Assembly (NCBI GenBank): GCA_937922655.1
Contig: CALAJH010000001.1
Span: 124,001-188,000, forward strand
DNA: 64,000 nucleotides
DNA from: an uncultured Bacteroidia bacterium
GTDB taxonomy: Bacteria > Bacteroidota > Bacteroidia > J057 > CALAJH01
Direction: 5' to 3'
A program made the translations under genes and the position numbers. This document shows positions 18,766-53,179 of the stretch, one piece after another. Each line of letters opens with the position of its first letter. The stretch's first letter is position 1. The notes beneath the pieces were generated by a model, which did not search any database, was not told the origin of the DNA, and worked only from the letters and a program-made list of their open reading frames with translations.

Positions 18766-20358
18766 TTATTTCATGGCGCTTTGGCCAACGGCCTTCAACA
18801 CGCCTTGTACGATAACGTCCGAACTCTTGCCGATGTGCTCCAAAAACGGCGTGGCGTAAAAGCCGATGACGAACATCAAAACAATCAAAGGCATGAGCGT
18901 CAGAACCTCCGAACCCGTCAAATCCGTCAGCTCTTGATTTTCTTTTTTGTCCAACGCTCCGAAAAGGACGCGCCGAAACATCCACAGCATATAAACCGCG
19001 GCAATAATCACTCCCGTCGTTGCAATGACCGTGATGGCTTTGGAGAATGCCACGGACTTAAACGAACCCAACAAAATCAAAAATTCCCCGACAAAACCGT
19101 TCAATCCCGGCAGACCTATCGACGAAAGCGTCGTTATCATGAACATAAGCGTAAAGGTCGGAACCACTTTGGCAATACCCTGATAGTCGGCGATTTCCCG
19201 CGTGTGGCGTCGGTCGTAAATCATGCCGACCAAAAAGAACAGGGCGCCGGTGGAAATGCCGTGGTTGACCATCTGCAACACCGCCCCGCTCATCGCTTCT
19301 TCGGTCATGGCGAAAATACCCATAATCACAAAGCCCATGTGTGCGACCGACGAATAAGCCACCAGCTTTTTAATGTCGGTTTGCACCATGGCGGCCATCG
19401 CGCCGTAGGTAATGCCAATCAGACCCAAAAACGCCATCGTCGGGGCAAAGTCAAAGCTGGCGTCGGGGAAAAGAGGCAAACAAAAACGAACGATGCCGTA
19501 AGTGCCGAGTTTCAACAATACGCCCGCAAGCAACACCGAACCTGCGGTCGGCGCCTGAACGTGCGCGTCCGGAAGCCATGTATGGAAGGGGAAAAGCGGC
19601 ACCTTTATCGCAAAGCCCAATATAAAGCCCAAAAACAGCCACGTCTGCACGTTTTCCGGCACGGCGTAGTGCTTGAGAATCAAATACAGATCGGAAGTAA
19701 AGCTCAGGCTTTGTTCCGTTTTGACGGCCACCGTTTCCGCCGCCGTAAAGCCCAAATACAATATCGCAATGAGCATCAACAACGAGCCGACAAGCGTGTA
19801 AAGAAAAAACTTCACCGCCGCATAGACCCTTTCCTTACCCCCCCATATTCCTATGAGAAAATACATCGGAATGAGGCCCACCTCAAAGAAAATATAGAAC
19901 ATGACCACGTCCAACGAAACGAACACCCCCAAAACCCCCACTTCCAACAGCAAAAGCAAAAGATAATAAGGCTTTTCAAGTTTGTCAATCGAGTTCCATG
20001 AGAAAAAGATGGACAACGGAAAGAGCAGCGTGGTCAATAAATAAAGATATACCGAAACGCCGTCCAAGCCGGTGATGAACTTGACGTCGAACGGGGCCAC
20101 GAAACCGTCTTGAGTCGAATAACCGAGCCAATAATATGCTTTTTTGAAAACGAAGTCGCCGGTTTCGAGGGCGGGATTGGCGTATTGTAGGTAGCCGCCG
20201 AAGACCCAAAGCGATACACCCAACGTCGCCAACGACGTGAGCAGGGCGATAATTTTCGCGTGCCGAACGCCGGCGAGCAATATCAACACCGCACCGACCA
20301 ACGGCAAAAACACCGACACGTTCAGCAGCAAATTGTATAAATCGTTTACCGGACCCAT
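18766..20358 (-). CDS. nuoM: NADH-quinone oxidoreductase subunit M (proton-pumping antiporter-like)
   Basis: A 530-residue integral membrane subunit of complex I with about 14 membrane helices. FFEVGLIPMYFLIGIWGG carries the conserved helix-5 Glu, and KVPLFPFHTWLPDAHVQAP the conserved Lys, His and proton-channel residues; LKLGTYG follows. The start is set at 20358 because a near-ideal promoter occupies 20389-20418, and the upstream in-frame ATG (20391) would overlap the -7 element. It is isolated: neither nuoL nor nuoN is adjacent, and the next gene on the strand is era. It may complete a nuo operon located elsewhere, or belong to a related NDH or Mrp-like complex. Confidence 0.93.
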   Translation of the reverse strand: MGPVNDLYNLLLNVSVFLPLVGAVLILLAGVRHAKIIALLTSLATLGVSLWVFGGYLQYANPALETGDFVFKKAYYWLGYSTQDGFVAPFDVKFITGLDGVSVYLYLLTTLLFPLSIFFSWNSIDKLEKPYYLLLLLLEVGVLGVFVSLDVVMFYIFFEVGLIPMYFLIGIWGGKERVYAAVKFFLYTLVGSLLMLIAILYLGFTAAETVAVKTEQSLSFTSDLYLILKHYAVPENVQTWLFLGFILGFAIKVPLFPFHTWLPDAHVQAPTAGSVLLAGVLLKLGTYGIVRFCLPLFPDASFDFAPTMAFLGLIGITYGAMAAMVQTDIKKLVAYSSVAHMGFVIMGIFAMTEEAMSGAVLQMVNHGISTGALFFLVGMIYDRRHTREIADYQGIAKVVPTFTLMFMITTLSSIGLPGLNGFVGEFLILLGSFKSVAFSKAITVIATTGVIIAAVYMLWMFRRVLFGALDKKENQELTDLTGSEVLTLMPLIVLMFVIGFYATPFLEHIGKSSDVIVQGVLKAVGQSAMK

Positions 20359-20388: not shown

Positions 20389-20418
20389 CAAAAATACGCA
20401 TTATATCGCAAAAGCCAA
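20389..20418 (-). promoter_or_regulatory. Near-consensus promoter for nuoM
   Basis: On the minus strand TTG (20416-20418) is followed after 19 bases by TATTTTTG (20389-20396), an exact TAnnTTTG match with consensus spacing. Transcription would start near 20382, giving a leader of about 24 bases before the ATG at 20358. This decides between the two possible nuoM starts. Confidence 0.6.
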
Positions 20419-20551: not shown

Positions 20552-20559
20552 TATTTTTG
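20552..20559 (+). promoter_or_regulatory. Candidate -7 element, small 55-residue protein gene
   Basis: TATTTTTG matches TAnnTTTG on the plus strand, 91 bases before the small gene's ATG. No TTG lies at the usual -33 distance. Confidence 0.35.
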
Positions 20560-20650
20560 TACTCTATCTTGCGAATCTAAATTTCAAAAAAGAAAAAAAT
20601 CGAATGACGGCCATCGAAACACCTTTACTCCACCTTAATCAATTTTCATC

Positions 20651-20818
20651 ATGGAGTACGCCGTTGAAATTCTGGAGCGCGAACTTCGTCAAATTGACAA
20701 GTTCGTCAAAAATTCCCCTCGTTTGCAACAAAACGTTCGCGAGGGACGGGTTTATTTACAGCAAATGAACGAAATTCGTTCGGCGCTCAAGGTCATCAAA
20801 AACCGTATGCGCCCCTAA
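20651..20818 (+). CDS. Small helical protein, 55 residues, unknown function
   Basis: An open frame of 55 codons starting MEYAVEILERELRQIDK and ending KNRMRP. The composition is coding-like and strongly helical: heptad-like Leu/Ile spacing, many Glu, Arg and Lys, no Cys, no signal peptide. It reads as a short charged cytosolic coiled-coil or helix-hairpin protein. The case for a real gene is its position: a candidate promoter lies 91 bases upstream, and a 20-bp hairpin terminator starts 3 bases after the TAA. No family is recognised. An ATG at 20604 is in another frame and is not an alternative start. Confidence 0.65.
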   Translation: MEYAVEILERELRQIDKFVKNSPRLQQNVREGRVYLQQMNEIRSALKVIKNRMRP

Positions 20819-20820
20819 AC

Positions 20821-20863
20821 AAACAACGAACGGGGGCGGCTATGCCGCTCCCGTTCGTTGTTT
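20821..20863. terminator. Strong bidirectional hairpin terminator
   Basis: Arms 20821-20840 and 20844-20863 pair over 20 bp with one G-U, around a 3-base loop. The outer part is A-rich on one side and T-rich on the other, so it can act in both directions. It sits between the small plus-strand gene (stop 20818) and the convergent DUF2490-like gene (stop 20989). Confidence 0.8.
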
Positions 20864-20988: not shown

Positions 20989-21855
20989 CTATTCCCCCGA
21001 TTCCCAATCGTCTTTTGCGCCTGGGAAAATGCGTTTGGGCGGAGTTCGCGCCTTGGAAGAAATCTTGAACGGGTCACGCAACGTTACATCGACGCCCACG
21101 TTCACGCCCGATCGCGGCAGGCCAACGTTAATCAACTGTATCGCCCCTAGGCTTATCGTCATTTTCGGCAAACATAAAGAATAGTACGCCGAGACGCGCG
21201 TATCCCGCAATTGAAACGGTCTAGGACTTCGGTTGGTAAATATCGAAAAGGAGAAAAGTTGTTCGGCCCGAAAAGTGAATCGATGCTTAAGTTTGGAGTC
21301 CAAATAAGCGGCAAGTTCGGCGCGAAAGCGGCTTCGAGGTTGCAAGACTTCGTTACTTAAAACGAAGTCCACCGTTGAGAACAGACGAAACTCTTGACGA
21401 AACACCAACGCGAACTGCATTCGACGGGTCTCAAGCAAGTAATACAAGCGGGCGTAAAAACGGTATTCCTGACGCAACGACGTTTCCCCCGCGCCGTGCG
21501 GCGGGTCGCGATATTCGTTATGGAACCGGTAACTCAACGCCGTCGAAAACATAAACCGTGGATGGAAACGTTGAAAATACTCGGCGTTGGCAACCAAGAT
21601 GCCTTGACGGACGGTGGGAAGGTTGTTGCCCGGAGCCGAAAGCCGTCCGTTGCCCAAGTACGCGATGATTTTTCGGTTGCCCGTTGTATCAAGGTTCTGC
21701 TTGACCGCCAATGCCGTCCACAAACCAAAATCTCGTCCTCCCATTGCCGGCGGCGCCACCTGAGCGTGCGTCCATCCCGCAAAAAAAAATTCAATAAAGC
21801 AATGCGTTCCCACCCACAATTTTATGGACGTAAAACACAATCCAAACTTGTCCAA
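20989..21855 (-). CDS. DUF2490-like outer-membrane beta-barrel protein
   Basis: A 288-residue protein with a hydrophobic N-terminus ending near THAQ, a plausible signal peptide. The body is made of alternating aromatic and polar strands (DFGLWTALAVKQNL, YRFYARLYYLLETRRMQFAL, AYYSLCLPKMTISL) with the FGLWT start and the strand pattern typical of DUF2490 putative barrels. Function in that family is unknown. A candidate -7 element lies at 21878-21885, giving a short leader and supporting the start at 21855. The last residues are basic and non-barrel-like. It stands alone, convergent with the 55-residue gene across the shared terminator. Confidence 0.7.
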   Translation of the reverse strand: MDKFGLCFTSIKLWVGTHCFIEFFFAGWTHAQVAPPAMGGRDFGLWTALAVKQNLDTTGNRKIIAYLGNGRLSAPGNNLPTVRQGILVANAEYFQRFHPRFMFSTALSYRFHNEYRDPPHGAGETSLRQEYRFYARLYYLLETRRMQFALVFRQEFRLFSTVDFVLSNEVLQPRSRFRAELAAYLDSKLKHRFTFRAEQLFSFSIFTNRSPRPFQLRDTRVSAYYSLCLPKMTISLGAIQLINVGLPRSGVNVGVDVTLRDPFKISSKARTPPKRIFPGAKDDWESGE

Positions 21856-22204
21856 AACTCGATATGTTAACGGGAGGCAAAAATAAAGACTTTTCAGCCA
21901 ACTTTTCGGCGGCGCAAACGAGAAAACAACGAACGAAAGGCGGCAAGAGCGGAAACGAGCATGAAAACAATCGCCGTTCTTGCCCCGAAGGCTTTGACCG
22001 GGCCGTTGTTTGCCGCAAACGAATATAAACGCTTTCGCTTAGCGGCCGCACCTTTTCGGCCACAATTCAAGAAAACATTTTGCACGGCTAAGGCGCGACA
22101 CGAAACCCAAACCCAACAATAACGCAAATACCCTCCCAAATCTCCGCCCGCGCCGACCGTCGGAGCCGCAACCTCTTGATTGCGAAGAGTCAAAACCGTT
22201 TCGA
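21856..22204. other. Intergenic region between gpsA and the DUF2490-like gene
   Basis: 349 bp. It contains the -7 candidate TATTTTTG (minus, 21878-21885) for the DUF2490-like gene. No strong terminator follows gpsA; only a 5-bp CTCTT/AAGAG hairpin is visible near 22171-22187. A 53-residue plus-strand frame at 21961-22122 has no supporting signal. Confidence 0.45.
21878..21885 (-). promoter_or_regulatory. Candidate -7 element, DUF2490-like gene
   Basis: TATTTTTG on the minus strand, about 23 bases upstream of the ATG at 21855; a TTG lies too close (13 bases) to be an ideal -33 element. Confidence 0.4.
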
Positions 22205-25688: not shown

Positions 25689-26618
25689 TTAGAAATATTC
25701 GGGGGTGATGAGGTTGTAGGTGCGTCCGGATTTGCGGCCCGGACAAAGCCGATAGCCCACGGTAACTTCATGCGTTCCCAGCGTGTTGCGCATCCCCAAA
25801 CGTGCGACCGTTACGTCAAACGAATAACCGACGCGCAACGAACGTTCAAGTAAAAACACGCCCGCGTTGAACACCATCGCGTCGCGGAAGCGGTAGCCGG
25901 CGCCAACCCAAAACAGTCGGTAAAGCATGACGTTGGCGTTGAGGTCGAATTGGAACGGGGCGTGGGCCGCGAATTTGACGAGCGTCGAAGGGGTAAGGGT
26001 AATATCTTCGGTAAGATATACGTCGTATCCGCCGGTAAAAAAGAAGTGGCGGCGAAGCGCCGTTCCCAGCGCCTGATAATAAACGGGCATGGGAAATTCG
26101 GCCAAACGCAAAATGGAAAATCCTGCGTAAGCCCGGCGGTTGTGATAAAAAATCCCGGCGCCAAAGTCGGGCAAAACCGCCGTTTTATGTCCCGCCAAAA
26201 ACAACGGGTCGTCGGCATCGGCGTAACGAATCATATCGGGGTCGACGCCGTAGATTTGCATGGCCGCCTGCAGGCCCAAAGCCAACGCACCGTCGCCAAC
26301 GGGAATGCGAAACGCATAACTCAGTCCCAATCCCCCGTTGCGAAACGCCCCCAAAACATCGGTGTGAATAAACGCTCCAAAGCCCGAACGCAATTTCGGA
26401 ACCCCAATATGACCGTTGGCTCCGAAGGTGCGCGGCGCACCCGGAAAACTCGTCCATTGATGGCGGTATTGGGCATTGAGTTGAAGGCACGACGACGGCC
26501 CGACGCTCGCCGGATTGTACGCCGCACGATTGAACATATACTGGCTAAACGTCGTCTCTTGTTGTGCAGCGGCGTTCAACGCCGTTGTCGTCGCAATAAT
26601 CGTCAGTAGCTTTTTCAT
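25689..26618 (-). CDS. PorP/SprF family type IX secretion outer-membrane protein
   Basis: A 309-residue protein starting MKKLLTIIATTTALNAAAQ, a signal peptide. It has the family's N-terminal pattern (TTFSQYMFNRAAYNPASVG) and barrel strands through GAGYRFRDAMVFNAGVFL to the C-terminal VGYRLCP segment. PorP/SprF proteins sit in the outer membrane and are required for secretion or surface attachment of cargo with the type B C-terminal domain. Exactly such cargo is encoded 5 bp upstream. ATG 26618 is chosen because it gives the signal peptide and follows the adhesin stop; the longer frame adds 50 non-conserved residues. Confidence 0.92.
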   Translation of the reverse strand: MKKLLTIIATTTALNAAAQQETTFSQYMFNRAAYNPASVGPSSCLQLNAQYRHQWTSFPGAPRTFGANGHIGVPKLRSGFGAFIHTDVLGAFRNGGLGLSYAFRIPVGDGALALGLQAAMQIYGVDPDMIRYADADDPLFLAGHKTAVLPDFGAGIFYHNRRAYAGFSILRLAEFPMPVYYQALGTALRRHFFFTGGYDVYLTEDITLTPSTLVKFAAHAPFQFDLNANVMLYRLFWVGAGYRFRDAMVFNAGVFLLERSLRVGYSFDVTVARLGMRNTLGTHEVTVGYRLCPGRKSGRTYNLITPEYF

Positions 26619-26623
26619 CGTTA

Positions 26624-29548
26624 TTAGCGCAAAATGGTCAAATGGCTTTTTATCGGCTCGGTTTCGCACTTGTTGAATTGCAAAAGAAAATAGTAAGTTC
26701 CTTCGGGAAGGTTGTCGCCCGTCCAGTCGTTGCGGTAGGGTGCGGCTTCGTAAACCAACGTTCCCCAACGGTTGAACACCTGCAAGGTCGCCAACGGAAA
26801 TCGGTCGGTAAGGTTGTCCACGACCTCGAAAACGTCGTTTTTACCGTCGCCGTTGGGAGTAAAGGCGTTGCGCAATTCAAACGGCCCGATGGGAACGACG
26901 ACGACGTTGCCCGGCGCGGAAAGTTCGTCCTCGTCGTCGAGGACGTCGTTACAGTTGCGGTCGCTTTTGACACGGGCGTAAACCGCGTCGCATTCTCCAA
27001 TAGCACGGGGCAAATCGGGCGTTTCCCAACTTCCGTCAGGTGCAACAACGGCCAAACCCACCGGTTGGTCGTTTATATACAGAGTTACCGCGGCTTGTAA
27101 AACGGCGCCCGTGGTCAAGCGCGAAAAATTCACCCGTCCTTGGGCCGAGGTTCCGTTGACGGCGACCGACTTCGGGTCTACGAACGGCGGCGAAACCACG
27201 GGTGAAAAACGCACTTCCACTCGCGCCGTATCCGTGCATCCCGAAACGGTGTCCGTGCCCATAACGGTATAGGTCATGGTCGAATCGACGTAAAACGCCC
27301 GAACCTCGGCGCCCGAAACGGCGCTTAAGCCCAAGGCGGGAGACCACGCGTAAACATGGGCTCCGCTTGCGGTTAAACGGCCGTCGTTTTCTTCGGGCAA
27401 AACGCAAAGTTTTGCGTCGTCGGCGCCGTTGACCACGACGTTGGGCGGCGGTACGACTTCCAACGGCACAAGTATGTTGGCCGTACAACCGTCGGGATGT
27501 CGGGCGAAAACGGTATAATAACGCGTTCCGGGCGGACCGACGACGTCGACGTCCAGTACGGCGCCGACTCCTACTTCCTCCTCGTCCAACTCCCATGTGT
27601 AAACGCAGTTGTTGCAAGGAGTGCGGTCGCTGAAAACGGCGCGGGCGACGAGCGTTCGTGATTGCCCCGGACAAGCACGGCGCGGCGCTTCGGCTTCAAC
27701 GCTCATCGTCACCGTTTCCACACGTACGCTTCGCGTCTGTTCGCAAATTACGCCGTTGGGAAAGGTCGCCGAATTCGGATAAACCGCACGAACCGTAACG
27801 GTGTAGGTTTGGTTGAAAAGCGGAGTAACGCTAAACGTCGGCCCGGAGGCGTTGCCCGGTTGCCAATTGTACTCTATTTGCCCCCCTTTGGCCTCGACTT
27901 CGTCAAGGTTCAACACGCCGACGGAAAGCAAGGCTTGGTTCGGTAAACACAATTTGACCAACGGATTGACGGCCACCTCGGGCGACGGTAAAAACGAAAC
28001 GCTCACCGTCGTTTCGTCGAAACAACCCGTGCCGGGTTCGACCGCCCTAACGTAATAAGTAACGTCGGTAACGCCGGGTGGGGGAAAAAGAATGTTGGTG
28101 TTGCCGTTGCCTTCAAAAACGTTGCCGGCATCGTCGCGCCAAAAAAATTGCGCGGGACGGTTGGCAACGGCGGTAACGGTAACGCCGGTACGGGTGCAAC
28201 CGCCCGCCGTCGCCGTCGCCGTCACCGTCAAAGGGCCGACTTGCGTCGGCGTGCCGAGCGTATAAGTGGCGGTGCAGGTATCGACGTCGTCGGCGCCGGA
28301 GGGATGGAACTGCCATGCGGTAACGGTGTACGACGCACCGGGCGTATGCGAAACCGAGGCCCGGCTGCACAACGGCGGATTCAAACACGGATTGAGTATA
28401 TTCGGACCGGGCGTCCAAACATAACGAAAAGTGGAAGCGTTTTCGGGGTCGAGAAGATTGACGGCGGTGAACGTGCCGTTTATCGGCCCTTGCGAACTTT
28501 GACACCACAACGCCGACGGGTCGGAAACGACCTGTATTTCGGGTGCGGAATAAATTTCCACTTCCAACGTTCGGGTCGCGGTGCACCCGTCAACGCTTAA
28601 TCCTTCGAACGTCAGGGTGTATCTTCCCGGCGGACCGCTGAAAGTATAATCCCCGCCCACCACCGCAGGCGGAATTAAATTGCCGACGGGAGGATCGACC
28701 CTACCGGTAAACGTTCCGTTGCCCAAGACTTGAATGGAAATCAAGTCGTTTTCGCATACCGTTGGGTCGGGAGAAAACAAAACAAAATTAAACGGCGAGG
28801 CTCCGGGATTGACGACGACGTCGACGCTCGTGGTGTCCGAACAGCCGGCGACGTTCGTCGCCACACAGGTAAAAGATTGAGACGTTTGCATCGAAGAAAT
28901 CGTCAGCGTCGAACCCGAATGCCCGCCCGGAAGCCACTCGTAAGTTACGCCGGGGTCGCCGCTGTTGTTGTTGGCGGTAAGCACAACGTTGGCGCCGGGA
29001 CAAATCAATCCGCCCGGACTAACGTTCACCGCAATCGACGGCGTAGGTACGGCAACGACGGTAAACGTCTGCAAAGAAGTACAGGCGCCTTGCGTTCCCG
29101 TAACGGTGTAGGTCGTTGTCTGCGTAGGCGTTACGCTTATCGAAGAACTTTGAATGCCACCGTTCCAAACCCATTGGGTTGCGCCCGAAGCGCTTAAAAC
29201 GACCTCCGTCCCCGAACAAACGACCGTATCCGTCGCGGAAATCGAAATTTGCGGCAAAACAACGACCGTCGCGCTGTCGATACACGTCGTCCCGCCTACG
29301 TTTATCACGACGGTGTAAACGGTGGTGGTCGCGGGATTGGCAACGGGATTGGCGATATTGGGGTCGCTCAAGCCCGTAGCGGGACTCCATTGGTAACTTG
29401 CGCCGCCGACGGCCGTCAGTTGCACCGAGTTTCCGCCGCAAAGTTGGGTTTGCGCGGGAGTTATGCCAACGCTCGTACAATTTTGCGCGACGGCGACGTG
29501 CCAAAACGATATTAGCATCATTATTGACACGGCAACATTAGTTATCAT
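26624..29548 (-). CDS. Ig/PKD-repeat surface adhesin with type B gliding-motility C-terminal domain
   Basis: A 974-residue exported protein. The signal peptide ends HVAVAQ. About ten Ig-like or PKD-like modules follow, each with the CxG...V.LTA...YQWSPATGLS kind of core. The last ~85 residues, FTPNGDGKNDVFEV...FNRWGTLVYEA...LPEGTYYFLLQF, are the gliding-motility-associated (CHU_C, T9SS type B) sorting domain. It is predicted to be exported by T9SS and retained on the surface. It heads the operon with the SprF-like, PorE-like and gpsA genes, downstream of a good promoter. The start at 29548 is supported by the promoter at 29585-29612, which excludes the longer frame. Confidence 0.9.
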   Translation of the reverse strand: MITNVAVSIMMLISFWHVAVAQNCTSVGITPAQTQLCGGNSVQLTAVGGASYQWSPATGLSDPNIANPVANPATTTVYTVVINVGGTTCIDSATVVVLPQISISATDTVVCSGTEVVLSASGATQWVWNGGIQSSSISVTPTQTTTYTVTGTQGACTSLQTFTVVAVPTPSIAVNVSPGGLICPGANVVLTANNNSGDPGVTYEWLPGGHSGSTLTISSMQTSQSFTCVATNVAGCSDTTSVDVVVNPGASPFNFVLFSPDPTVCENDLISIQVLGNGTFTGRVDPPVGNLIPPAVVGGDYTFSGPPGRYTLTFEGLSVDGCTATRTLEVEIYSAPEIQVVSDPSALWCQSSQGPINGTFTAVNLLDPENASTFRYVWTPGPNILNPCLNPPLCSRASVSHTPGASYTVTAWQFHPSGADDVDTCTATYTLGTPTQVGPLTVTATATAGGCTRTGVTVTAVANRPAQFFWRDDAGNVFEGNGNTNILFPPPGVTDVTYYVRAVEPGTGCFDETTVSVSFLPSPEVAVNPLVKLCLPNQALLSVGVLNLDEVEAKGGQIEYNWQPGNASGPTFSVTPLFNQTYTVTVRAVYPNSATFPNGVICEQTRSVRVETVTMSVEAEAPRRACPGQSRTLVARAVFSDRTPCNNCVYTWELDEEEVGVGAVLDVDVVGPPGTRYYTVFARHPDGCTANILVPLEVVPPPNVVVNGADDAKLCVLPEENDGRLTASGAHVYAWSPALGLSAVSGAEVRAFYVDSTMTYTVMGTDTVSGCTDTARVEVRFSPVVSPPFVDPKSVAVNGTSAQGRVNFSRLTTGAVLQAAVTLYINDQPVGLAVVAPDGSWETPDLPRAIGECDAVYARVKSDRNCNDVLDDEDELSAPGNVVVVPIGPFELRNAFTPNGDGKNDVFEVVDNLTDRFPLATLQVFNRWGTLVYEAAPYRNDWTGDNLPEGTYYFLLQFNKCETEPIKSHLTILR

Positions 29549-29584
29549 AATGTATTTAACTTTTGAATAATGGCAATCGCGGTG

Positions 29585-29612
29585 CAAATATAAGCACATT
29601 TTTGTCTTGCAA
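29585..29612 (-). promoter_or_regulatory. Promoter of the adhesin/SprF/PorE/gpsA operon
   Basis: On the minus strand TTG (29610-29612) precedes TATATTTG (29585-29592) by 17 bases; the -7 box is an exact TAnnTTTG match. Transcription would start near 29578, giving a leader of about 30 bases. It excludes in-frame starts upstream of 29548. Confidence 0.55.
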
Positions 29613-29953
29613 GTCCCCCACCCTCCCCTATTTCTAATCAAATCATAAGAACGCTCCTTTTTGGGGTTACAAGGGTTGCGTTGAAAAAAACAATTTTCCG
29701 TTTTATTTTGGTTTTCGAGCGGGATTTTTCGTGCGATTCGGGACTTTTCGACCGGGCGCCACGAAGCCATGCTTTACGGCCGTGATTTTAGGAACTTCCA
29801 CGGGGAATGAACGTCTTCATCCGTTCCCGCGCCGTTCGACCAAACGTTCGGATTTTTTAATCCAAGTAAAACAAAGGCTGTGGACTTTTGCCAAACGATA
29901 CAAATTACGAATGCGTTATGAATACGGACAAAACGAGACGCCGAAGATTATTT

Positions 29954-32898: not shown

Positions 32899-32974
32899 CC
32901 ATTGATGAATTTTTTTTCATTCAAATGTGTTTTCAAAACAAATCGTTAATTTTACGCACTTAATTACAATTCAA

Positions 32975-33304
32975 ATGGCAACAAAACTTTCCGTGGAATT
33001 GACGGATTCCAATTTTCAAGGTTATTTGGCGTCGGGCCGGCCGATGATGGTGGATTTTTGGGCGGCGTGGTGCGGTCCATGCCGTGCCATTGCTCCGGCC
33101 GTCGAGGAGTTGGCCGCCGAATTTGAAGGCAAGGCCGTGGTTGGCAAAGTCGACGTCGACGTCAATCCTCAGGTGTCCGCTCAGTACGGTATTACCAGCA
33201 TCCCTACCCTCCTTTTCTTTAAAGACGGAAAATTGGTGGACAAAGCCGTCGGCGCCCAACCCAAACCCGCCCTTAAAAAGAAACTTGAAGCGCTGTTGAA
33301 TTAA
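32975..33304 (+). CDS. trxA: Thioredoxin
   Basis: A 109-residue cytosolic thioredoxin with active site WCGPC (Cys33, Cys36), the preceding FWAAW and the cis-Pro loop SIPTLLFF. It lacks a signal peptide, so it is the cytosolic reductant rather than an envelope oxidoreductase. The ATG at 32975 gives the standard length; an upstream in-frame ATG would add 16 unconserved residues. A 13-bp hairpin terminator follows at 33330-33366, so it is probably transcribed alone. Confidence 0.95.
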   Translation: MATKLSVELTDSNFQGYLASGRPMMVDFWAAWCGPCRAIAPAVEELAAEFEGKAVVGKVDVDVNPQVSAQYGITSIPTLLFFKDGKLVDKAVGAQPKPALKKKLEALLN

Positions 33305-45044: not shown

Positions 45045-46573
45045 GGGCGGCATGGGTGTATTGGCTGGGCTACGGCGTTTTGGCGTGGATTTTCGCATGG
45101 GAACGCGTACATTACGACGCGCCGCTCTACATCATGAAAATGCTCAAAACCGGACAATTCACCTTCGAGCATTTTCGCACTACGGGGCCGCTTTTTGAAT
45201 GGGCGCCGCTTTTGGCCACAAAATTCGGCGCCGGCCTCGAAACGATAGTCCGTTTGCATTCGCTCAACGACTGGCTGATGGGCTTCGGGGCTTTTTTGAC
45301 GCTGGCCTACGGTGTGCGTTCGCCGACGGCCGCCGGCGTGTGGACTTTCGCCATGGCCGTCGGCTACCGTTACAATTTCGTCGTTCCGGTTAGCGAATTG
45401 TATCCCGGATTGGCTTTGTTGATGGTTGCGGCTTATGTCAAGCGCAACGCCGGGTTTGCCGCTTTGTGGGGATGGACGGGCCACGTTTTAACCCTTGCCG
45501 CCGCCGCCGGATGGATGCTTTGGCACGCCCTCAAATTCGGATTAACCCGAAAACTCTATTGGACGGCCGCATTATCCGTTGTTGCCTTGGCTTATCACCT
45601 CGCCGTTTCCACCGACTACCAAACCTCGCAATCCGCCTCTTTACTTTCCACCGCCGCAACAGAAATTCAAAACCTACCCTGTCCCATTCAACCTTATTTC
45701 AAATCTAAACTTAAAGATTGGCTTTACGTCGCCGTTTTCGGTTTGGAACTTTTTGTTTTGGGCGTTTGGGGATGTATGCTGTTGACGCGTGGGCGCTTGG
45801 CCAAACCCGAAGCGGCGTTGTTCGCTTTGGCCGTCGTCGGATTTTTGGTTTTCTTGTCCCGTCCGCGAACCCTCATGGCTTGGGGATTCGACATGAGCGA
45901 ACGCTATGTTTTCGTCTTTATTCTTTGGGCGATTTGGGCGTTGTATTTTCACGCACCGCGGGCAAAAATCTGGACGCTCGTCGCCTTCACGTCCGTCGTT
46001 CAGCTTTTTTTCTTCTTGAACCGACATCGCGACGTGCGTTTCCGACGTTTGGAACTCTTGTGCCAAACCATGAACCAATATCCCGAACAAAGATTTTTGA
46101 TTCGGGAGTCGAATTGGGTGACGGAAAAAATCGGTACCGACGTAGGGTTGTGGGGCGAAACGCCCTTGTTTTCCACGGCCCGATACGGAACGTCCAAACA
46201 AGCGGTTTCCGAGGAGGCGATAGCCGTTGCGGGAATACAATTCATCGAACCGGGAGAATATCGGCATTTTGATTTTCGAGCCGGACCTATACGTATTTTG
46301 AACACCGACGGCGCAAACAACGAAGAATCGGTGAAAAAACTGCATCTTGAAGCCCAAGGCGGGCGCGTAAACGTTTTCAACCCCGGTACCGACACCGTCT
46401 TCTCGGGCTTGTGCAAAACGCCCGTCAAAATAGGTTACGAAAGCGGTTCCAAACCCGTACCCCTAACCACCGACCTTCCCCCCAACGCGCAATGTACGGT
46501 CTTGATACGTCCGGGCAAGGGAAAATTGGGCGTTTGGTGGGAAAATAGATTTATTCTACCATCATCGTATTAA
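45041..46573 (+). CDS. Polytopic membrane protein with extracytoplasmic C-terminal domain, unknown
   Basis: A 510-residue protein starting MRAAWVYWLGYGVLAWIF at ATG 45041, which overlaps the dprA stop (ATGA 45041-45044). About nine membrane helices fill residues ~5-335; a loop with YDAPLYIMKMLKTGQFTFEHF follows the first helix, as in some GT-C glycosyltransferases, but the diagnostic acidic pair is not clear. The C-terminal ~170 residues are soluble and beta-rich. No family is recognised. Its 3' end overlaps by 12 bp the 3' end of the giant PKD gene on the other strand. Confidence 0.65.
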   Translation: MRAAWVYWLGYGVLAWIFAWERVHYDAPLYIMKMLKTGQFTFEHFRTTGPLFEWAPLLATKFGAGLETIVRLHSLNDWLMGFGAFLTLAYGVRSPTAAGVWTFAMAVGYRYNFVVPVSELYPGLALLMVAAYVKRNAGFAALWGWTGHVLTLAAAAGWMLWHALKFGLTRKLYWTAALSVVALAYHLAVSTDYQTSQSASLLSTAATEIQNLPCPIQPYFKSKLKDWLYVAVFGLELFVLGVWGCMLLTRGRLAKPEAALFALAVVGFLVFLSRPRTLMAWGFDMSERYVFVFILWAIWALYFHAPRAKIWTLVAFTSVVQLFFFLNRHRDVRFRRLELLCQTMNQYPEQRFLIRESNWVTEKIGTDVGLWGETPLFSTARYGTSKQAVSEEAIAVAGIQFIEPGEYRHFDFRAGPIRILNTDGANNEESVKKLHLEAQGGRVNVFNPGTDTVFSGLCKTPVKIGYESGSKPVPLTTDLPPNAQCTVLIRPGKGKLGVWWENRFILPSSY

Positions 46574-49500
46574 ATTGACCGTTCCGTAAACTTCGACGGG
46601 GTCTGCGTTCGGCAGTACGGCGCGAAATTTATACGTATAAACCCCTTCGGGTACGGGAACGCCCTTGGGATTGTTGCCGTCCCAAAAAACGTCGGGACGA
46701 CGCGACTCAAACACCGGCATTCCCCACCGGCCGTAAATCGTCATGTGTACGCTTTGATAAACGGACAAATTTTTGATTTCCAGCACGTCGTTGAGACCGT
46801 CGCCGTTGGGGGTGAAGGCTGAGGGTATGGCCGGCGCCGCCGGTTGTATTCGTACCGTATCTTCGTCCGTTGCTTCGCACCCTCCCTCGCCAAGGACCCG
46901 TACGGTTACGGGGTAGCGGCCCGGCAGGAAATAAGTTTTTTCCGCGTACGGCAAATCCGGGCCCTGTTCTCCGTCTCCAAAGTCCCAAAAATAAACAACG
47001 TTGCCCGTCGCGCCGCGTACACGAAATTCAACCGTCGTCGGCGCCCTGTATTCTTCCGCCCAATGCTCCAATACGATTTCGGGCGCCGTGCGAACGACTA
47101 CTTTTTTTTCTTCAACGACCGACGAACAGGCGTTTTGCACCACTTGCAAACGCACGGTTTTGGTTCCGGGGTTGGTCCAACGGACGCGATGCGGCCCCGG
47201 CCCCCAACCCGGTTCGCCGTAGCCGCCGTCAAAATCCCACAAAAACGCCGTTCCCGTACTCGTTGGAACACCCGCGTAACGAACACCGACAAAACTGTCG
47301 ATACACGCGAACGACGGCGCGATAAATTCGGCGTCGGGCGTACCGACCTTTACCGTCCTTTCGTAAACCGACGAACCGCAACCGTACGCTTCGACGCGCA
47401 AACGCACGTATTTGACCCCCGGCGTATTCCAGCGCACCAAATGCGGCCCGCGTCCAAAACCCGGTATCGCTTTGCCGCCGTCGAAATCCCATTCGTACGT
47501 CGCGTTCGGCTCCGAGGTCCCCGTGTAGGTCACTTTCAACGAATCGGTAACGCATAATTCCCCCGGACAATAAAATTGCGAAGACGGCACGGGCCGAACC
47601 CGTATTGTCGCACTCGTTTCGTTGGACGGACAACCTTGACGTTCGACGCGCAAGCGTACGATTTTCGTTCCGCTGTCGGGCCAAACGATTAACGGCGTAG
47701 CGTCGGAACCGCCGACGCGTTCCCCGCCCGCAAAATCCCAATGGTACGTCGCGTTCGCGTCGAAAGGATGTATCGTGCCGGCAACGGCGAACGCTTCCCC
47801 AACGCAAGCCGTCTTGTTCGGAGGTGCAATTTCCGCAACGGGTATGGGTTGGACGGCCACGTCCCGTATCCACACGTCGGAAACGCAACCGTTTTCCTCG
47901 ACGCGCAAACGCACCCGATACACGCCCGGTTCGCGCCAAATCACCGTCCCCCATCCAAGCGAATCCCCGTTTTCGTATTCCCAAAGATATTGCGCCGACG
48001 CACCGGCCGTTCCCGTAAACGCAAAGCGTACCGTATCCGAAACACACACCGACGACGGCCCCTCAAACGACGAAAACGGCGTTTGCCGAACCTCCATCGT
48101 ATCGGTAAAAACCGAGGAAGTACAGGCGTCGAAAACGACGTATAAGCGAACGGGAATTTTTCCCGAAGCCAACCATGCGGCCAACCACCGCCCCGTACCC
48201 GCCGGTTCGTACGCTCCGCCCGGACCAAAGTCCCACACGTATTCCGAACCCTCGGGGGCGAACCCCGTAAACGTAACCGTTGCCCCGTCTCCCGTACACG
48301 TCCACGTTTTGTCGAAAACAAAGGCCGCCTCGGGACGTACGTCGTTGACCCGTACCCGCGCGGTGTCGTAGTATTCGCATTCGTCGTTGAGGCGGGAAAA
48401 CAAAACGTATTCCGTGTTTTCGCTCGGAAAAACGTTCAAAGACGGCGAATGGGAAATCACGCTGTCGTTGAACATCCAAAACAGTTCCAACTGGGGCGCG
48501 TTGCCGGGCAGTTGGGCCGTGAGTGTCAGTGTGTCGCCAAGGCATATCAATACGGTGTTGGGATACGCTTGCGCCAAACGTTCGTAAACCCATATCGTAT
48601 CTCGGAACGCGGCCGACGTGCATTGTCGGTCTTCGACCGTTAGTTCGACGATTTTCGGCCCTTCGCTTTCCCAAACGAACGTCGGGATATCGTCGGCCGA
48701 GGCGACGCTTGTTTGTCCGGCAAAGTTCCAAGTCAAAATCGCGTCGGGGCCGGCGTTTCCGTCAAACGAAAACACTACGGGCCGCCCCGTGCACACCGCA
48801 CGGGGATGGGCGACAAACGACGCCGTCGGCACGGGCTTGACAACTATCGGATGCGATACCGGCCCGTCGGTACAACCCGCGTGGTCGAGCGTCAAACTTA
48901 CGACGTAATTGCCCGGCGCGTTAAACACGACCCGCAAAGGGTTCGACGACACGATTTGTCCCGGCCCCGCTTCCCACTGAAAAACGGTTTGAGGCGGGGC
49001 GAAGCCCGTGAACGAAACCGTAAGCGTTTCTCCCGCACAGGCCTCGGCCGGCAAATCGAAGGCCGCCGTCGGAAAAGCGTTCACACGAATCAAGCGGCTT
49101 ACCGTTTGGGAGGTGCAAGCGTTTTCTACGACGCGCAAACGCACGTTTTTCGTGCCCGCTTCGTTCCAATGAACGGTGTGCGGGCCTTGACCCGTTCCGG
49201 GGAACGCCGTGCCGCCGTCGAAATCCCAAAAAAATTCCGCCCCCGTACCGGCTTGTCCCGTAAAGGTCAGCGTCGCCGGCGACCCCGAACACACTTGCGT
49301 CAAAGACGTTGAAAAATCCGCCGTCGGTATGGGGTAAACCATGACGTTTTGCGTAAAAACAGACGAGGTACACGCCCCGGAAACGACGTACAATCGAAGG
49401 GTTTTGGCGCCGCCGGTATTCCAACGAACGGTGTGCGGGCCTTGACCCGTTCCGGGGAACGCCGTGCCGCCGTCGAAATCCCAAAAATACTGACCGCCCG

Positions 49501-52500
49501 CCACGCCCGTAAAAGTCGTCGTCAAACTTTCATTGACGCACAAGGCGTTTCGGGACAAAGAAAAATGAGCCGTCGGCGTTAACGAAACGGAAAACGCAAT
49601 TTGCGCAACGGTCGTACAACCGTTGGCGACGGCCGTCAAAGTTACGGTTTTGTTTCCGGCGGTGTTCCATACGACGGATTGATTTTGAGCGCCCGAACCC
49701 GGCGAAGCCGTGCCGCCGTCAAAATTCCATGTGTACGTCGTTCCCGCAGGGCCCGTTCCCGAGAATTGAACGGCGACCGTTTCGCCCGTACAATAAAACG
49801 CGGCGGAAGAGAAAAGTTGGACCGTCGGGCGCAAACGAACGTTCAACGTCCGTTCAAAAACCGCCGACGTACATCCCCCCGCAACGACCGTTAAGGACAA
49901 GTTCTTGTCGCCCGGCGTGTCCCATGTAACGGAGTGCGGCCCCGCTCCCGTTCCCGGGACTGCCGTGCCGCCGTCAAAGTTCCAGACGAAAATTCCCGTA
50001 CCTTGCCCGTCGAAAGCGATGTTCGTCGCTTGTTCGGTACAGGCAAAGGCCGGAAGGGTGAACGATGCAACCGGAGTCGGAGCAACGACGAGGGTACGCG
50101 TCGCGACCGCGGAGGTACATCCGTTTTCCACGGCGTAAACGTTGATGGTTTGGGTTCCCGCGCCGTCCCAACGAACGATGCGATTCGGGCCGTCGGAAGC
50201 GACAACGCTTCCCGTCCCCAAATCCCAAACGATTTGCGCTCCCGTTCCCGTATAGGTTAGCGTTACGTTTTGGCCGACGCAAGCGGGAGAAGGATGGACG
50301 GTGAAATCGGCCGTCGGGGTGGGCCTGACGACCACGTTTTGACTTGCGACATTGGACGTACAACCTTCGAAAACGACGGACAAACGCACGGTTTTGTTTC
50401 CCGGAACGTTCCAAACAACGTTGTGCGACCCCGAAGGGCCGGGGGTGGCCGTACCGCCGTCGAAATCCCACAAAAAATTGGAACCGGCGGGCGCGGTTCC
50501 CTCAAAAACGATGTTCGTGTTTTGACCTGTGCAAAGCGTGGACGCGGAAACCGAAAACGCCGCCGACGGCACGGGGGTTACCGTTACGGCCATCGAATGG
50601 ACAGTGGAGGTACAGCCGCCGACAAAGGCGTAAAGCGACAACGTTTTCGGGCCGGGGGTATTCCAACGGACGGTATGCGGCCCCGGCCCCACGCCCGGAA
50701 CGGCCGTGCCGCCGTCAAAATCCCATACGTACGTCGCACCCGGCGTAATGCTTCCAAGGTTGGTGGTAATTTGTCCATCCAAACAAACGGACGTCGAACT
50801 TACGTTGAAGAGCGACGACGGCGTTGGGGCGACGTTCACCGTATAACTTAGGGTTTGGGACGAGCAGGCGCCCGCCACGACGGTGAGGGTAACGTTCTTC
50901 GTTCCGGGGCTGTTCCAAACGAGTTCGTGCGGACCGGGGCCCGTGCCGGGGGTAGCCGTCGCGCCGTCGAAATTCCAGATAAAACCGGCGCCCGGCGGGG
51001 CGTTACCCGTAAAGGTCAGGGTGGACGGACGGCCCGTACACGCCGATGAAGATAAGTTGAATTGCGCCGTCGGCGTTTGTACGACCCAAATCGAGCGTTG
51101 GAAAACGGTCGAAGAACAACCGGCGCTAACGGCCAAATGTCGAACGGTTTTGAGGCCGGGGGTGTTCCAATAAACGTTGTGCGGGCCTTGTCCCGTACCC
51201 GGAACGGCCACGCCGCCGTCGAAATCCCAAGTCAATTGGGCGCCGAGGGGAGCGGGTTCGACACGCGCAACGGTCGTTGTTTGGCCGGTGCAAAGCGTTT
51301 CCTGAGCGACGGTAAACGCCGAAGACGGAACGCCCAAAATCGTCAGCGTCCGTGTCGCGACGGTGGAAGTACATCCCCCGGCCACGACCCTAAGGGTAAG
51401 AATTCTCACGCCGGGCGGGTTCCACAACACGGTATGCGGACCGACGCCGTTGGGGGGAAGGTTCATTTGTCCGTCACCGAAATCCCACAAATACGTCGCT
51501 CCCCCCACAACGTTGCCCGTATACTGCACGACGGCCGTTTGCCCCGAACAGAGTGTTTCGGGGGTGACGGTAAAGACGGCCTCGGGCGTGGGACGCACCG
51601 GAACGTTCAACGACGCGGGCGGCGCCGGACAGCCGTTGACCGAAACATTGAGCGTAACGGTGCGGTTTCCGGGGGTGTTCCACGTAACGGTATGCGGGCC
51701 CGGGCCCGTACCCGGAACGGCCACGCCACCGTCGAAATTCCATGCAAAAGTCGAACCCGGCGGAACCACGCCGTTCGCCGTAACCGTAAACGCCTGTCCC
51801 GTACAGGCAAAGCTTTCCGAACCCGACAACGACACCGGCACAAGCGCGACGACCTGAACCGTTCGGGTTTCGACGTCGGAAGTGCAACCGTTGGCGATGA
51901 CGCGAAGCGTCAGGGTTTTGGTTCCGGGCGTTGTCCAAGAGACGTTGTGGGGGCCGGGACCGGTTCCGGGGACGGCGTTGCCGCCGCCAAAATTCCAAAC
52001 GAAAGTGGCGCCGGGCGGAGCGTCGCCAAGGTAGGTTACCAAACCTTGCGTACCGATGCACAAACTCGCGGGAACCGAAAACGCCGACGAAAGCCCCTCC
52101 GAAATGACCACGCGCACCGTGTCGCGTTGTCGCGAACCCGAACACGACCCGCGCTGCGCTTCCAGGACGTACATCGTATTTTGCGACGGCGAAACGGTGA
52201 TGGACGTGGCGTTGGACGTAAATCCCGCGGGAATCGAACGCCAAGAATAATGAATTTCCCCCGGAATGTGGGCTTGAACGTTGAAAGTGACCGACTGGCC
52301 CGGACAAATAACGTGAACGGAAGGGGTAACGGAAGCCAGGTCGGCTTGTTGGAGGCAAACGTCGTTGCAATCGCCGGGGTTGGGCGGCGGTCCCAAACGG
52401 TTCCATGCGCCGCCGTCGGGAACGCGGTAAAATTTTCCGTTGGGCTGAAAAAAAAAGTCGGAACCCGTATGGGAAGCGTATTCCATTTGGCCCGCCAAAA

Positions 52501-53116
52501 AAATTTCCCGCGCCGACGGCAACGTTATCGCTTGCCCCGAACAGTTGCATTGAATCGTGTAAGGGCTTTGAAAGCGATAGTCGGTGAGGATGTTGTTGGC
52601 GCCGTTGGGGTTGTCGGCCCAAAAAACGGCGTCTATCGGTACGCCTTGCGGGGAAAAAAGCCCTATCCAACCATAGGAATTGTTTAAAAACCAACGCCGG
52701 GACGTGCAAAAATACTGGGTGTTTCTGTAATCGGCGAGGTTGAAGTCGGGTTGGATGATACCGTTGGGGCCGCCGACGACGATAAAACCGTAAGGGGGAA
52801 TGCGCGTTCCGGGCGGAAAAACAAAAGCGCCCGCGTTCTCGCCTCCAATGCCCGCGGTGCAAAGTCCGGCTTCGTTACCCATGTTGGAGGCAAGGATGTG
52901 GCAACTCAAATCCACGGTGTCGCAACCGCCGTTGCCAAGGTTGAAAATTTCTATCCATTCGGCGGCTTGGGTGGCGCCGCTTACCGGCGGACACGTCGTA
53001 TGGATGGAATTGGTGGCAATACCGCCCGGCGGCGCAACCATGATTTCGTTAATGACCAATTGCGCGCGCAGCCCCCCAAGGGGCCAAAGCATTCCTACCA
53101 GTACCCAAATTTTCAT
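46562..53116 (-). CDS. Giant PKD-repeat surface protein with lamin-tail domain and T9SS type B C-terminal domain
   Basis: A 2184-residue exported protein. The signal peptide (MKIWVLVGMLWPLGGLRAQ) is followed by a lamin-tail domain (~20-260: LVINEIMVAPPGG, AAEWIEIFNLG, SYGWIGLFSPQG). Then come about 19 tandem PKD-like modules of ~85 residues with the core WDFDGGTAVPGTGPGPHTV and a Cys in NGCTS, two Ig-like modules among them, and a classical PKD module. The last ~85 residues (SAFTPNGDGLNDVLEI, YGRWGMPVFES, VPEGVYTYKF) are the type B sorting domain. It should be secreted by T9SS and displayed as a long adhesin or matrix fibre. No SprF-like gene is adjacent; the set at 23-29 kb could serve it. 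The start is set by the signal peptide. Confidence 0.92.
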   Translation of the reverse strand: MKIWVLVGMLWPLGGLRAQLVINEIMVAPPGGIATNSIHTTCPPVSGATQAAEWIEIFNLGNGGCDTVDLSCHILASNMGNEAGLCTAGIGGENAGAFVFPPGTRIPPYGFIVVGGPNGIIQPDFNLADYRNTQYFCTSRRWFLNNSYGWIGLFSPQGVPIDAVFWADNPNGANNILTDYRFQSPYTIQCNCSGQAITLPSAREIFLAGQMEYASHTGSDFFFQPNGKFYRVPDGGAWNRLGPPPNPGDCNDVCLQQADLASVTPSVHVICPGQSVTFNVQAHIPGEIHYSWRSIPAGFTSNATSITVSPSQNTMYVLEAQRGSCSGSRQRDTVRVVISEGLSSAFSVPASLCIGTQGLVTYLGDAPPGATFVWNFGGGNAVPGTGPGPHNVSWTTPGTKTLTLRVIANGCTSDVETRTVQVVALVPVSLSGSESFACTGQAFTVTANGVVPPGSTFAWNFDGGVAVPGTGPGPHTVTWNTPGNRTVTLNVSVNGCPAPPASLNVPVRPTPEAVFTVTPETLCSGQTAVVQYTGNVVGGATYLWDFGDGQMNLPPNGVGPHTVLWNPPGVRILTLRVVAGGCTSTVATRTLTILGVPSSAFTVAQETLCTGQTTTVARVEPAPLGAQLTWDFDGGVAVPGTGQGPHNVYWNTPGLKTVRHLAVSAGCSSTVFQRSIWVVQTPTAQFNLSSSACTGRPSTLTFTGNAPPGAGFIWNFDGATATPGTGPGPHELVWNSPGTKNVTLTVVAGACSSQTLSYTVNVAPTPSSLFNVSSTSVCLDGQITTNLGSITPGATYVWDFDGGTAVPGVGPGPHTVRWNTPGPKTLSLYAFVGGCTSTVHSMAVTVTPVPSAAFSVSASTLCTGQNTNIVFEGTAPAGSNFLWDFDGGTATPGPSGSHNVVWNVPGNKTVRLSVVFEGCTSNVASQNVVVRPTPTADFTVHPSPACVGQNVTLTYTGTGAQIVWDLGTGSVVASDGPNRIVRWDGAGTQTINVYAVENGCTSAVATRTLVVAPTPVASFTLPAFACTEQATNIAFDGQGTGIFVWNFDGGTAVPGTGAGPHSVTWDTPGDKNLSLTVVAGGCTSAVFERTLNVRLRPTVQLFSSAAFYCTGETVAVQFSGTGPAGTTYTWNFDGGTASPGSGAQNQSVVWNTAGNKTVTLTAVANGCTTVAQIAFSVSLTPTAHFSLSRNALCVNESLTTTFTGVAGGQYFWDFDGGTAFPGTGQGPHTVRWNTGGAKTLRLYVVSGACTSSVFTQNVMVYPIPTADFSTSLTQVCSGSPATLTFTGQAGTGAEFFWDFDGGTAFPGTGQGPHTVHWNEAGTKNVRLRVVENACTSQTVSRLIRVNAFPTAAFDLPAEACAGETLTVSFTGFAPPQTVFQWEAGPGQIVSSNPLRVVFNAPGNYVVSLTLDHAGCTDGPVSHPIVVKPVPTASFVAHPRAVCTGRPVVFSFDGNAGPDAILTWNFAGQTSVASADDIPTFVWESEGPKIVELTVEDRQCTSAAFRDTIWVYERLAQAYPNTVLICLGDTLTLTAQLPGNAPQLELFWMFNDSVISHSPSLNVFPSENTEYVLFSRLNDECEYYDTARVRVNDVRPEAAFVFDKTWTCTGDGATVTFTGFAPEGSEYVWDFGPGGAYEPAGTGRWLAAWLASGKIPVRLYVVFDACTSSVFTDTMEVRQTPFSSFEGPSSVCVSDTVRFAFTGTAGASAQYLWEYENGDSLGWGTVIWREPGVYRVRLRVEENGCVSDVWIRDVAVQPIPVAEIAPPNKTACVGEAFAVAGTIHPFDANATYHWDFAGGERVGGSDATPLIVWPDSGTKIVRLRVERQGCPSNETSATIRVRPVPSSQFYCPGELCVTDSLKVTYTGTSEPNATYEWDFDGGKAIPGFGRGPHLVRWNTPGVKYVRLRVEAYGCGSSVYERTVKVGTPDAEFIAPSFACIDSFVGVRYAGVPTSTGTAFLWDFDGGYGEPGWGPGPHRVRWTNPGTKTVRLQVVQNACSSVVEEKKVVVRTAPEIVLEHWAEEYRAPTTVEFRVRGATGNVVYFWDFGDGEQGPDLPYAEKTYFLPGRYPVTVRVLGEGGCEATDEDTVRIQPAAPAIPSAFTPNGDGLNDVLEIKNLSVYQSVHMTIYGRWGMPVFESRRPDVFWDGNNPKGVPVPEGVYTYKFRAVLPNADPVEVYGTVNLIR
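49171..49487. repeat. 62-bp identical direct repeat inside the giant PKD gene, 255-bp period
   Basis: Bases 49171-49232 and 49426-49487 are identical over 62 bp, exactly 255 bp (85 codons) apart. They encode the conserved WDFDGGTAFPGTGQGPHTV core of two adjacent PKD modules. Other modules are similar but diverged at the DNA level, so this pair is a recent duplication or gene-conversion product. Confidence 0.85.
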
Positions 53117-53179
53117 TCTCAACCTTAAAAAGAAACGCAAAAAGCGGGCCAATCGTTACAAAAAATTATGGCTTGGAGA

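What the first reader, a model, noticed from the sequence alone, without database searches (positions are those of the whole stretch)
20552..20863. 55-residue small protein gene with dedicated promoter and 20-bp terminator
A compact transcription unit encodes a charged helical protein with no known family. The very strong terminator directly after the stop argues that the unit is real.
Basis: partly seen in the sequence, partly recalled or inferred. Interest (0 to 1): 0.5.

Follow-up and report, generated by a model that had tools for sequence, protein, structure and literature searches.

The report
Lineage-specific 55-residue helical protein gene
A bacterium of the Bacteroidota carries a tiny stand-alone gene, with its own start signal and a strong RNA hairpin at its end, for a 55-residue helical protein; it looks like a real but otherwise ordinary orphan gene whose nearest look-alikes are small accessory genes in viral DNA.

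Summary
A + strand unit runs from a Bacteroidota -7 promoter box (TATTTTTG, 20552-20559) through a 55-codon ATG ORF (20651-20818) to a 20-bp hairpin (20821-20863, -36 to -37 kcal/mol). The ORF is probably real: its codon use is gene-like and its helical amphipathicity, carried by the first helix, exceeds all 105 spurious ORFs of similar size in the window; AlphaFold2 gives confident helices. The overlapping frame shows neither signal. The only lead is a group of 50-70-residue ORFs in viral contigs with a similar start (M-x-Y-A-[IV]-[EQ]-x-L) and end ([IL]xxA[ILV]xx[IL]). A profile of viral members alone ranks this gene first among 395 phylum genomes (E 1.6e-5), but they were chosen by motifs modelled on it; outside the motif the match is modest (0.3-2.4% of shuffles do as well) and was absent with the first set. 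Verdict: a probably real, lineage-restricted small-protein gene, possibly phage-derived; function is inference.

The parts
20552..20559 (+). Bacteroidota -7 promoter box TATTTTTG (TAnnTTTG); start of transcription expected near 20564
   Evidence: 21 intergenic sites against 4.5 expected; 99 nt before the ATG; position rule (box at -12 to -5) from a passage of PMC9723704; consensus from passages of PMC6847099 and PMC7366714
20564..20650 (+). Presumed 5' untranslated leader, about 87 nt, without marked structure; A at position -3 of the start codon
   Evidence: 20566-20650 folds no better than 100 shuffles (z 0.84); start context; A-3 as a positive determinant from passages of PMC6847099
20651..20818 (+). 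55-aa ORF (P0001), predicted all-helical: helix 2-21, break near 22, helix from 23 or 29 to 53
   Evidence: ORF; codon score; amphipathicity; AlphaFold2
20821..20863 (.). 20-bp hairpin 2 nt after the stop codon, presumed transcription terminator, possibly for both convergent genes; all 20 pairs form in the + strand RNA (one G-U), one A/C mismatch in the - strand RNA
20604..20768 (+). Overlapping 54-aa ATG ORF in another frame; judged not coding
   Evidence: codon score 0.02 bits/codon; amphipathicity no better than shuffles, 1041 of 2000
20989..21855 (-). Convergent neighbour (288-aa ORF, no Pfam family at E 0.001), which may share the hairpin; has its own TATTTTTG at 21885
18766..20358 (-). 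Divergent neighbour, NuoM-like proton-pump subunit (Proton_antipo_M), with its own TATTTTTG at 20396

Best explanation
This is a real monocistronic gene for a 55-residue, basic (12 K/R against 7 D/E) helical protein found only in this lineage among what could be searched. Steps supported by sequence analysis: a Bacteroidota-type -7 box, a gene-like 55-codon frame with a strongly amphipathic first helix, and a stable 20-bp hairpin right after the stop. Inferred: transcription starts near 20564 and ends at the hairpin, which probably also stops the convergent gene. Inferred: the protein folds as an antiparallel helical hairpin that dimerises into a four-helix bundle and works as a small adaptor or regulator by binding a partner protein or nucleic acid, as Rop and Aqs1 do in principle. 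Inferred and weaker: it is a distant relative of 50-70-residue accessory mini-proteins (start M-x-Y-A-[IV], end [IL]xxA[ILV]xx[IL]) seen in viral contigs, so it may be a phage-derived gene kept in the chromosome. My odds: real translated gene about 0.8; relation to the viral group about 0.5; adaptor or regulator mechanism about 0.35.
For: Codon score in the range of real genes (30% of 305 55-codon chunks of the 35 training ORFs score lower; 12 of 125 spurious ORFs reach it). Mean hydrophobic moment reached by 2 of 2000 shuffles and 0 of 105 spurious ORFs; the overlapping frame shows no such signal. AlphaFold2 mean pLDDT 88.6 with the viral rows and 92.5 from the single sequence. Promoter box in the right place and strand. 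Hairpin z -8.49. Viral small ORFs with the same start: in 16 of 28 stretches matching the motif it begins, or nearly begins, a 50-65-aa ORF (several of the 16 near-identical). Profile of 15 viral members without this protein: E 1.6e-5, best of 395 genomes and the only one of 5 hits in a short open frame. C-terminal motif in 18 of 19 viral members and in this protein, against 347 of 20000 shuffled tails and 29 of 389 windows of other window proteins. Match outside the selected start, wider set: 14-32 of 3000 composition shuffles with profiles, 8-10 of 3000 with pairwise scores; 42-73 and 21-36 of 3000 when the hydrophobic pattern is kept.
Against: No homologue by single-sequence search: own order 1 of 22 genomes, itself; class sample 10 of 395 at E 0.1, its own and nine weak hits; none confirmed in genome contigs or viral contigs; none in phages; plasmids 3 weak hits, E 2 to 8, under ParA annotations. 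The reverse-complement frame of the ORF scores slightly higher in codon use (0.282; it holds a stop, longest listed ORF 30 aa). Amphipathicity is significant only for the first helix (5 of 5000 shuffles); the second helix alone is not (1007 of 5000). No control sequence was folded, and single helices get high pLDDT easily; the single-sequence model has pTM 0.52. Viral members were chosen with motifs modelled on this protein, so the profile E-value is inflated; with the first 12 members the rest of the protein did not match (1023 of 3000 shuffles as good), and the first profile matched positions 1-22 only. Four viral members tried had no match in the named phage collection. The ORF RNA is somewhat structured (z -2.55). 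No fold match reaches E 0.001.
Confidence: 0.6

Rival explanations
1. The unit makes a small regulatory RNA of about 300 nt (promoter near 20552, terminator hairpin 20821-20863) and the 55-codon frame is incidental.
For: Promoter and hairpin are also the marks of an independent small RNA; in F. [quoted passage not shown] The transcript without the hairpin folds better than 100 shuffles on average (z -3.24).
Against: No Rfam family at its gathering score anywhere in the window. Codon score and amphipathicity of the frame are not expected of an RNA gene. The leader itself has no marked structure (z 0.84).
Confidence: 0.13
2. The ORF is a chance frame in an intergenic region and the hairpin is the terminator of the convergent minus-strand gene 20989-21855.
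For: The hairpin lies 125 nt past that gene's stop, and the minus-strand tail (TTGTTTGTTTAGG) is richer in T than the plus-strand tail (TTGTTTACCCC). No homologue by single-sequence search. The codon score alone is reached by 12 of 125 spurious ORFs.
Against: The stem is fully paired only in the plus-strand RNA (-36.3 against -32.4 kcal/mol). A -7 box points into the ORF, and no other gene-like plus-strand frame lies before the convergent gene. The frame beats 105 of 105 spurious ORFs in amphipathicity.
Confidence: 0.12
3. The protein is a chromosomal copy of a phage accessory mini-protein that acts on a host regulator (anti-activator or anti-defence adaptor), kept as a moron-like gene with its own promoter and terminator.
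For: Shared start and end signatures with viral small ORFs; self-contained transcription unit; in the 8 viral loci listed most of these ORFs lie among other short ORFs (read by eye). Aqs1, a 55-residue phage anti-activator, is among the weak fold matches (E 4.1).
Against: No prophage gene was recognised in the Pfam scans of 11 window proteins; phage models were not run on the neighbours. Similarity outside the start motif is modest and was absent with the first set. Fold match insignificant.
Confidence: 0.2

Closest known systems
Unnamed 50-70-residue ORFs of viral contigs (21 rows among L158-L185, and L228, L230, L249, L250), start M-x-Y-A-[IV]-[EQ]-x-L
   Same: Length, start motif (by selection), C-terminal [ILMV]xxA[ILMV]xx[ILMV] (18 of 19 members and this protein); closest is L228, with a 16-column C-terminal match (NEIRSALKVIKN here, LEIKTALKVLKN there)
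   Different: 7 of the 11 viral rows aligned share a middle section with YP[ED] that this protein lacks; they lie in viral contigs, this one between nuoM and a convergent gene; none of the four tried matched a named phage
Rop (Rom), ColE1 RNA-binding helical hairpin
   Same: Size and shape of the model made with viral rows (3k79: TM 0.70/0.68)
   Different: E 5.3, 8% identity: no evidence of relation. Function of Rop is recalled, not from a call
Aqs1, phage quorum-sensing anti-activator
   Same: 55 residues (6v7v_D: TM 0.74/0.74)
   Different: E 4.1, 18% identity: no evidence of relation
PHROG 5386 (unknown function)
   Same: Weak match of residues 1-18
   Different: E 0.091 only; the family rang in none of 149 genomes searched nor in the controls, so absence is not shown

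Membership tests
Bacteroidota sigma-ABfr-type transcription unit | -7 box TAnnTTTG upstream of the gene, same strand | tested here: met
   TATTTTTG at 20552, 99 nt before the ATG
Bacteroidota sigma-ABfr-type transcription unit | -33 TTTG element | tested here: not met
   No TTTG in the 30 bases before the box (sequence). The element was also not identified in F. johnsoniae (PMC7366714 introduction, passage), so this is not decisive
Intrinsic (Rho-independent) terminator | Stable G+C-rich stem-loop after the gene | tested here: met
   20 bp, -37.1 kcal/mol, z -8.49
Intrinsic (Rho-independent) terminator | Run of U directly after the stem | tested here: not met
   TTGTTTACCCC; not listed by the scan that asks for 5 T in 8 bases
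Viral MxYA mini-protein group (described here) | Short stand-alone ORF starting M-x-Y-A-[IV]-[EQ]-x-L | tested here: met
   the motifs were modelled on this protein, so this is not independent
Viral MxYA mini-protein group (described here) | C-terminal [ILMV]xxA[ILMV]xx[ILMV] | tested here: met
   Present; 18 of 19 viral members; 347 of 20000 shuffled tails; 29 of 389 windows of other proteins
Viral MxYA mini-protein group (described here) | Profile match outside the selected start | tested here: inconclusive
   Negative with the first 12 members; 14-32 of 3000 shuffles with the wider set; 42-73 of 3000 with hydrophobic pattern kept
Any Pfam, NCBIfam or PHROGs family | Score above the curated cut-off, or a significant E-value in PHROGs | tested here: not met
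   Only hits: PF14071 E 0.054 (14.2 of 27 bits), NF038266 E 0.015 (14.7 of 290 bits), phrog_5386 E 0.091
Rop-like dimeric four-helix bundle | Homodimer of helical hairpins binding RNA | not testable with these tools
   Only the monomer was predicted; no RNA-binding assay possible

The most novel reading that the evidence does not exclude
The gene is a chromosomal member of an undescribed, very divergent superfamily of two-helix mini-proteins that phages carry as accessory genes, here kept by a bacterium under its own promoter and terminator to act on a host regulator or on infecting phages.
Probability: 0.2. Interest if true: 0.5.

Novelty: new member of a known kind. Interest (0 to 1): 0.25.

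Why it matters
Small proteins are common and mostly unexplained: in a catalogue of microbial small ORFs only 6.1% of families had a conserved-domain assignment (PMC11364881, passages). This case adds one probably real example with clear transcription signals, and a lead that some chromosomal orphans may descend from phage mini-proteins that sequence searches miss because they are short and divergent. If the link holds, the motif pair (start MxYA, end AxxxL) would be a handle for collecting the group.

Tried and rejected
Single-sequence homology searches in the own genome, relatives, order, class, genome contigs, viral contigs, phages and plasmids gave nothing usable. Synteny: a NuoM match at E 1e-60 was found in 46 of 60 genomes, its own included; stretches around it from 12 of them, all of the same order, were fetched, some of them short contigs, and none has an ORF like this one (1200 ORFs of 35-130 aa in 29 locus ids, some of them the same DNA under two ids; best score apart from itself 42, a 38-aa ORF antisense to a longer one). 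The convergent neighbour has a match in 1 of the 21 other order genomes; gpsA matches in 7 of the 21, and those loci were among the ones scanned. PHROG 5386 as a family: nothing rang, controls included. Six viral small ORFs against PHROGs: nothing better than E 0.0089. A profile search of viral contigs returned 9 confirmed loci of 68 candidates, all on contigs already held; a stricter motif returned 3 stretches, all already held. First viral profile: the rest of the protein did not match; I then widened the set with two other motifs (2 of 6 new stretches are members, L228 and L230; 7 of 34 stretches hold members, three of them new ORFs, L160b, L249, L250). This is a second look and is reported as such. 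From the 21 rows of viral small ORFs I used 12 in the first profile, 19, and 15 in the last; L162, L169, L173, L174, L179 and L180 were left out of the last as near-duplicates. The other stretches matched by the motifs (12 of 28, 4 of 6 new ones, 27 of 34) were not used: internal to longer frames, very short, or of other make-up. Structure libraries gave no significant match. The circular rotations of the tail (30 of 45 score as high) are not an informative control, since local scores survive rotation. Literature on such a group: 73 papers, 8 listed, none opened for this except PMC11364881; no paper; these are narrow searches and do not show that none exists. A search on terminators in Bacteroidetes found no paper. 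Papers: passages only of PMC6847099, PMC9723704, PMC7366714 and PMC11364881; all others were seen only as search listings.

Full report
What was checked. Its first base is the start of TATTTTTG, an exact match to the Bacteroidota -7 box TAnnTTTG (consensus in passages of PMC6847099, PMC9723704 and PMC7366714). In the window 21 TAnnTTTG sites start in intergenic DNA where 4.5 are expected after mononucleotide shuffling; they include this one (99 nt before the ATG), one for nuoM at 20396 and one for the convergent gene at 21885. With the box at -12 to -5 transcription would start near 20564, giving a leader of about 87 nt, longer than the medians of 24 and 32 quoted. The leader has no marked structure (z 0.84 for 20566-20650) and the start codon has A at -3, a favourable context in F. 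johnsoniae.

The frame. The ORF 20651-20818 encodes 55 residues. Length alone is weak evidence. A codon log-odds score trained on 35 longer ORFs of the window gives 0.261 bits/codon; 30% of 305 55-codon chunks of those same training ORFs score lower, and 12 of 125 (9.6%) spurious ORFs reach it; the reverse-complement frame scores 0.282 but holds a stop (longest listed ORF there 30 aa). The mean helical hydrophobic moment is reached by 2 of 2000 shuffles and by 0 of 105 spurious ORFs of 45-100 aa; 10 of those 105 reach the codon score and none reaches both. Taken apart, the first helix carries this signal (5 of 5000 shuffles); the second helix alone (1007 of 5000) and the middle (1104 of 5000) do not. 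The overlapping 54-aa ORF at 20604 and the 99-aa frame containing it show neither codon nor amphipathicity signal. AlphaFold2 predicts helix 2-21 and helices to residue 53, mean pLDDT 88.6 and pTM 0.67 with viral rows, 92.5 and 0.52 from the single sequence. I take the protein as real with odds of about 0.8.

The hairpin. Arms 20821-20840 and 20844-20863, 20 nt, 95% complementary, -37.1 kcal/mol with flanks, z -8.49, first of the 14 inverted repeats listed for the window; its core pattern is unique in the genome. In the plus-strand RNA all 20 pairs form with one G-U; in the minus-strand RNA the same place is an A/C mismatch (-36.3 against -32.4 kcal/mol for the same 43 bases), though with wider flanks the minus strand is also very stable (-36.2, z -5.66). 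The U-tract is poor on the plus strand and somewhat better on the minus strand, and a scan that asks for a T-run did not list it. It lies 2 nt after this ORF's stop and 125 nt after the stop of the convergent 288-aa ORF.

Genome context. The window is from a Bacteroidota genome (3.58 Mb, 84 contigs): PorP/SprF, CHU_C type IX secretion signals and the promoter type agree. The nearest NuoM among the 80 loci kept from genome contigs is 64% identical, in a Bacteroidetes MAG. Of the 59 relatives, 21 are of the same order and none of the same family or genus. The protein was found in 1 of 22 order genomes, its own. In the class sample 10 of 395 had a match at E 0.1 or less: its own genome and nine weak hits (best 0.00265), most in long frames or with stops inside. 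The 12 relatives whose nuoM neighbourhood was read (L146-L157) have other genes there and no similar small ORF. The frame-conservation test is therefore not available.

A possible family. I recalled, from no call, that phages of Bacteroidota carry mini-proteins beginning MxYAIEVLE. A DNA pattern for M-x-Y-A-[IVM]-E-[IV]-L-E in viral contigs hit 28 stretches; in 16 of them it begins, or nearly begins, a 50-65-aa ORF (some of the 16 near-identical); the other 12 are internal to longer frames or very short. Two other patterns added L160b, L228, L230, L249 and L250; most of the other new stretches are unrelated. The group ends in [ILMV]xxA[ILMV]xx[ILMV] in 18 of 19 members; this protein has it too, against 347 of 20000 shuffled tails and 29 of 389 windows of other proteins of the window. 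In the same test the best pairwise score of the tail was reached by 20 of 3000 shuffles and 1 of 389 windows. A profile of 15 viral members without this protein hits it over model positions 1-50, E 1.6e-5, the best of 395 phylum genomes; 5 of 395 have a hit at E 0.01 or less, the other four in frames of 132-877 aa. An earlier 12-member profile gave E 4.4e-4 over positions 1-22 only, the best of 149 genomes. Because members were chosen with motifs modelled on this protein, those E-values are inflated. Tested outside the motif, the first set failed (1023 of 3000 shuffles as good); the wider set gave 14-32 of 3000 (from residue 10 or 13 on) with profiles and 8-10 of 3000 with pairwise scores, and 42-73 and 21-36 of 3000 when shuffling kept the hydrophobic pattern. 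This is modest evidence, from a second look. I put the relation at about even odds.

How it may work. A helical protein of 55 residues with a strongly amphipathic helix usually needs a partner to bury its hydrophobic face; dimerisation into a four-helix bundle is a common solution (established knowledge; not tested). With 12 K/R and 7 D/E the protein is basic, so nucleic acid or an acidic protein surface is a possible partner. Weak fold matches include Rop and Aqs1 and small uncharacterised phage proteins such as A0A6J5N6A5 (TM 0.80/0.86, E 0.68), all insignificant. An adaptor or regulator is my working model at about 0.35; it rests on shape only.

Verdict. Observation confirmed, interpretation partly supported. 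A probably real orphan small-protein gene of a common kind, with an unproved phage link.

Noticed in passing
32927-33304 (+); L109 and L110: A thioredoxin-family ORF (PF00085). In two relatives of one family a homologue (46-51% identical) lies divergently next to nuoM, the slot that the 55-aa gene holds here.
   Followed up: partly
46562-53152 (-) and 26624-29770 (-): Two long proteins (2196 and 1048 aa) ending in CHU_C type IX secretion signals, the larger with PKD domains; the second is next to a PorP/SprF-type gene at 25689-26768.
   Followed up: partly
20989-21855 (-): 288-aa ORF with no Pfam match at E 0.001; a distant match in only 1 of 21 other genomes of the order.
   Followed up: partly
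whole window: TAnnTTTG is about 4.6-fold enriched in intergenic DNA (21 against 4.5); 9 of the 21 sites lie within 40 nt of a start codon on the same strand.
   Followed up: yes
18766-20358 (-): A NuoM-like gene with no other nuo gene recognised beside it in the window; a second match, 37% identical, lies on contig C26 of the same genome.
   Followed up: no
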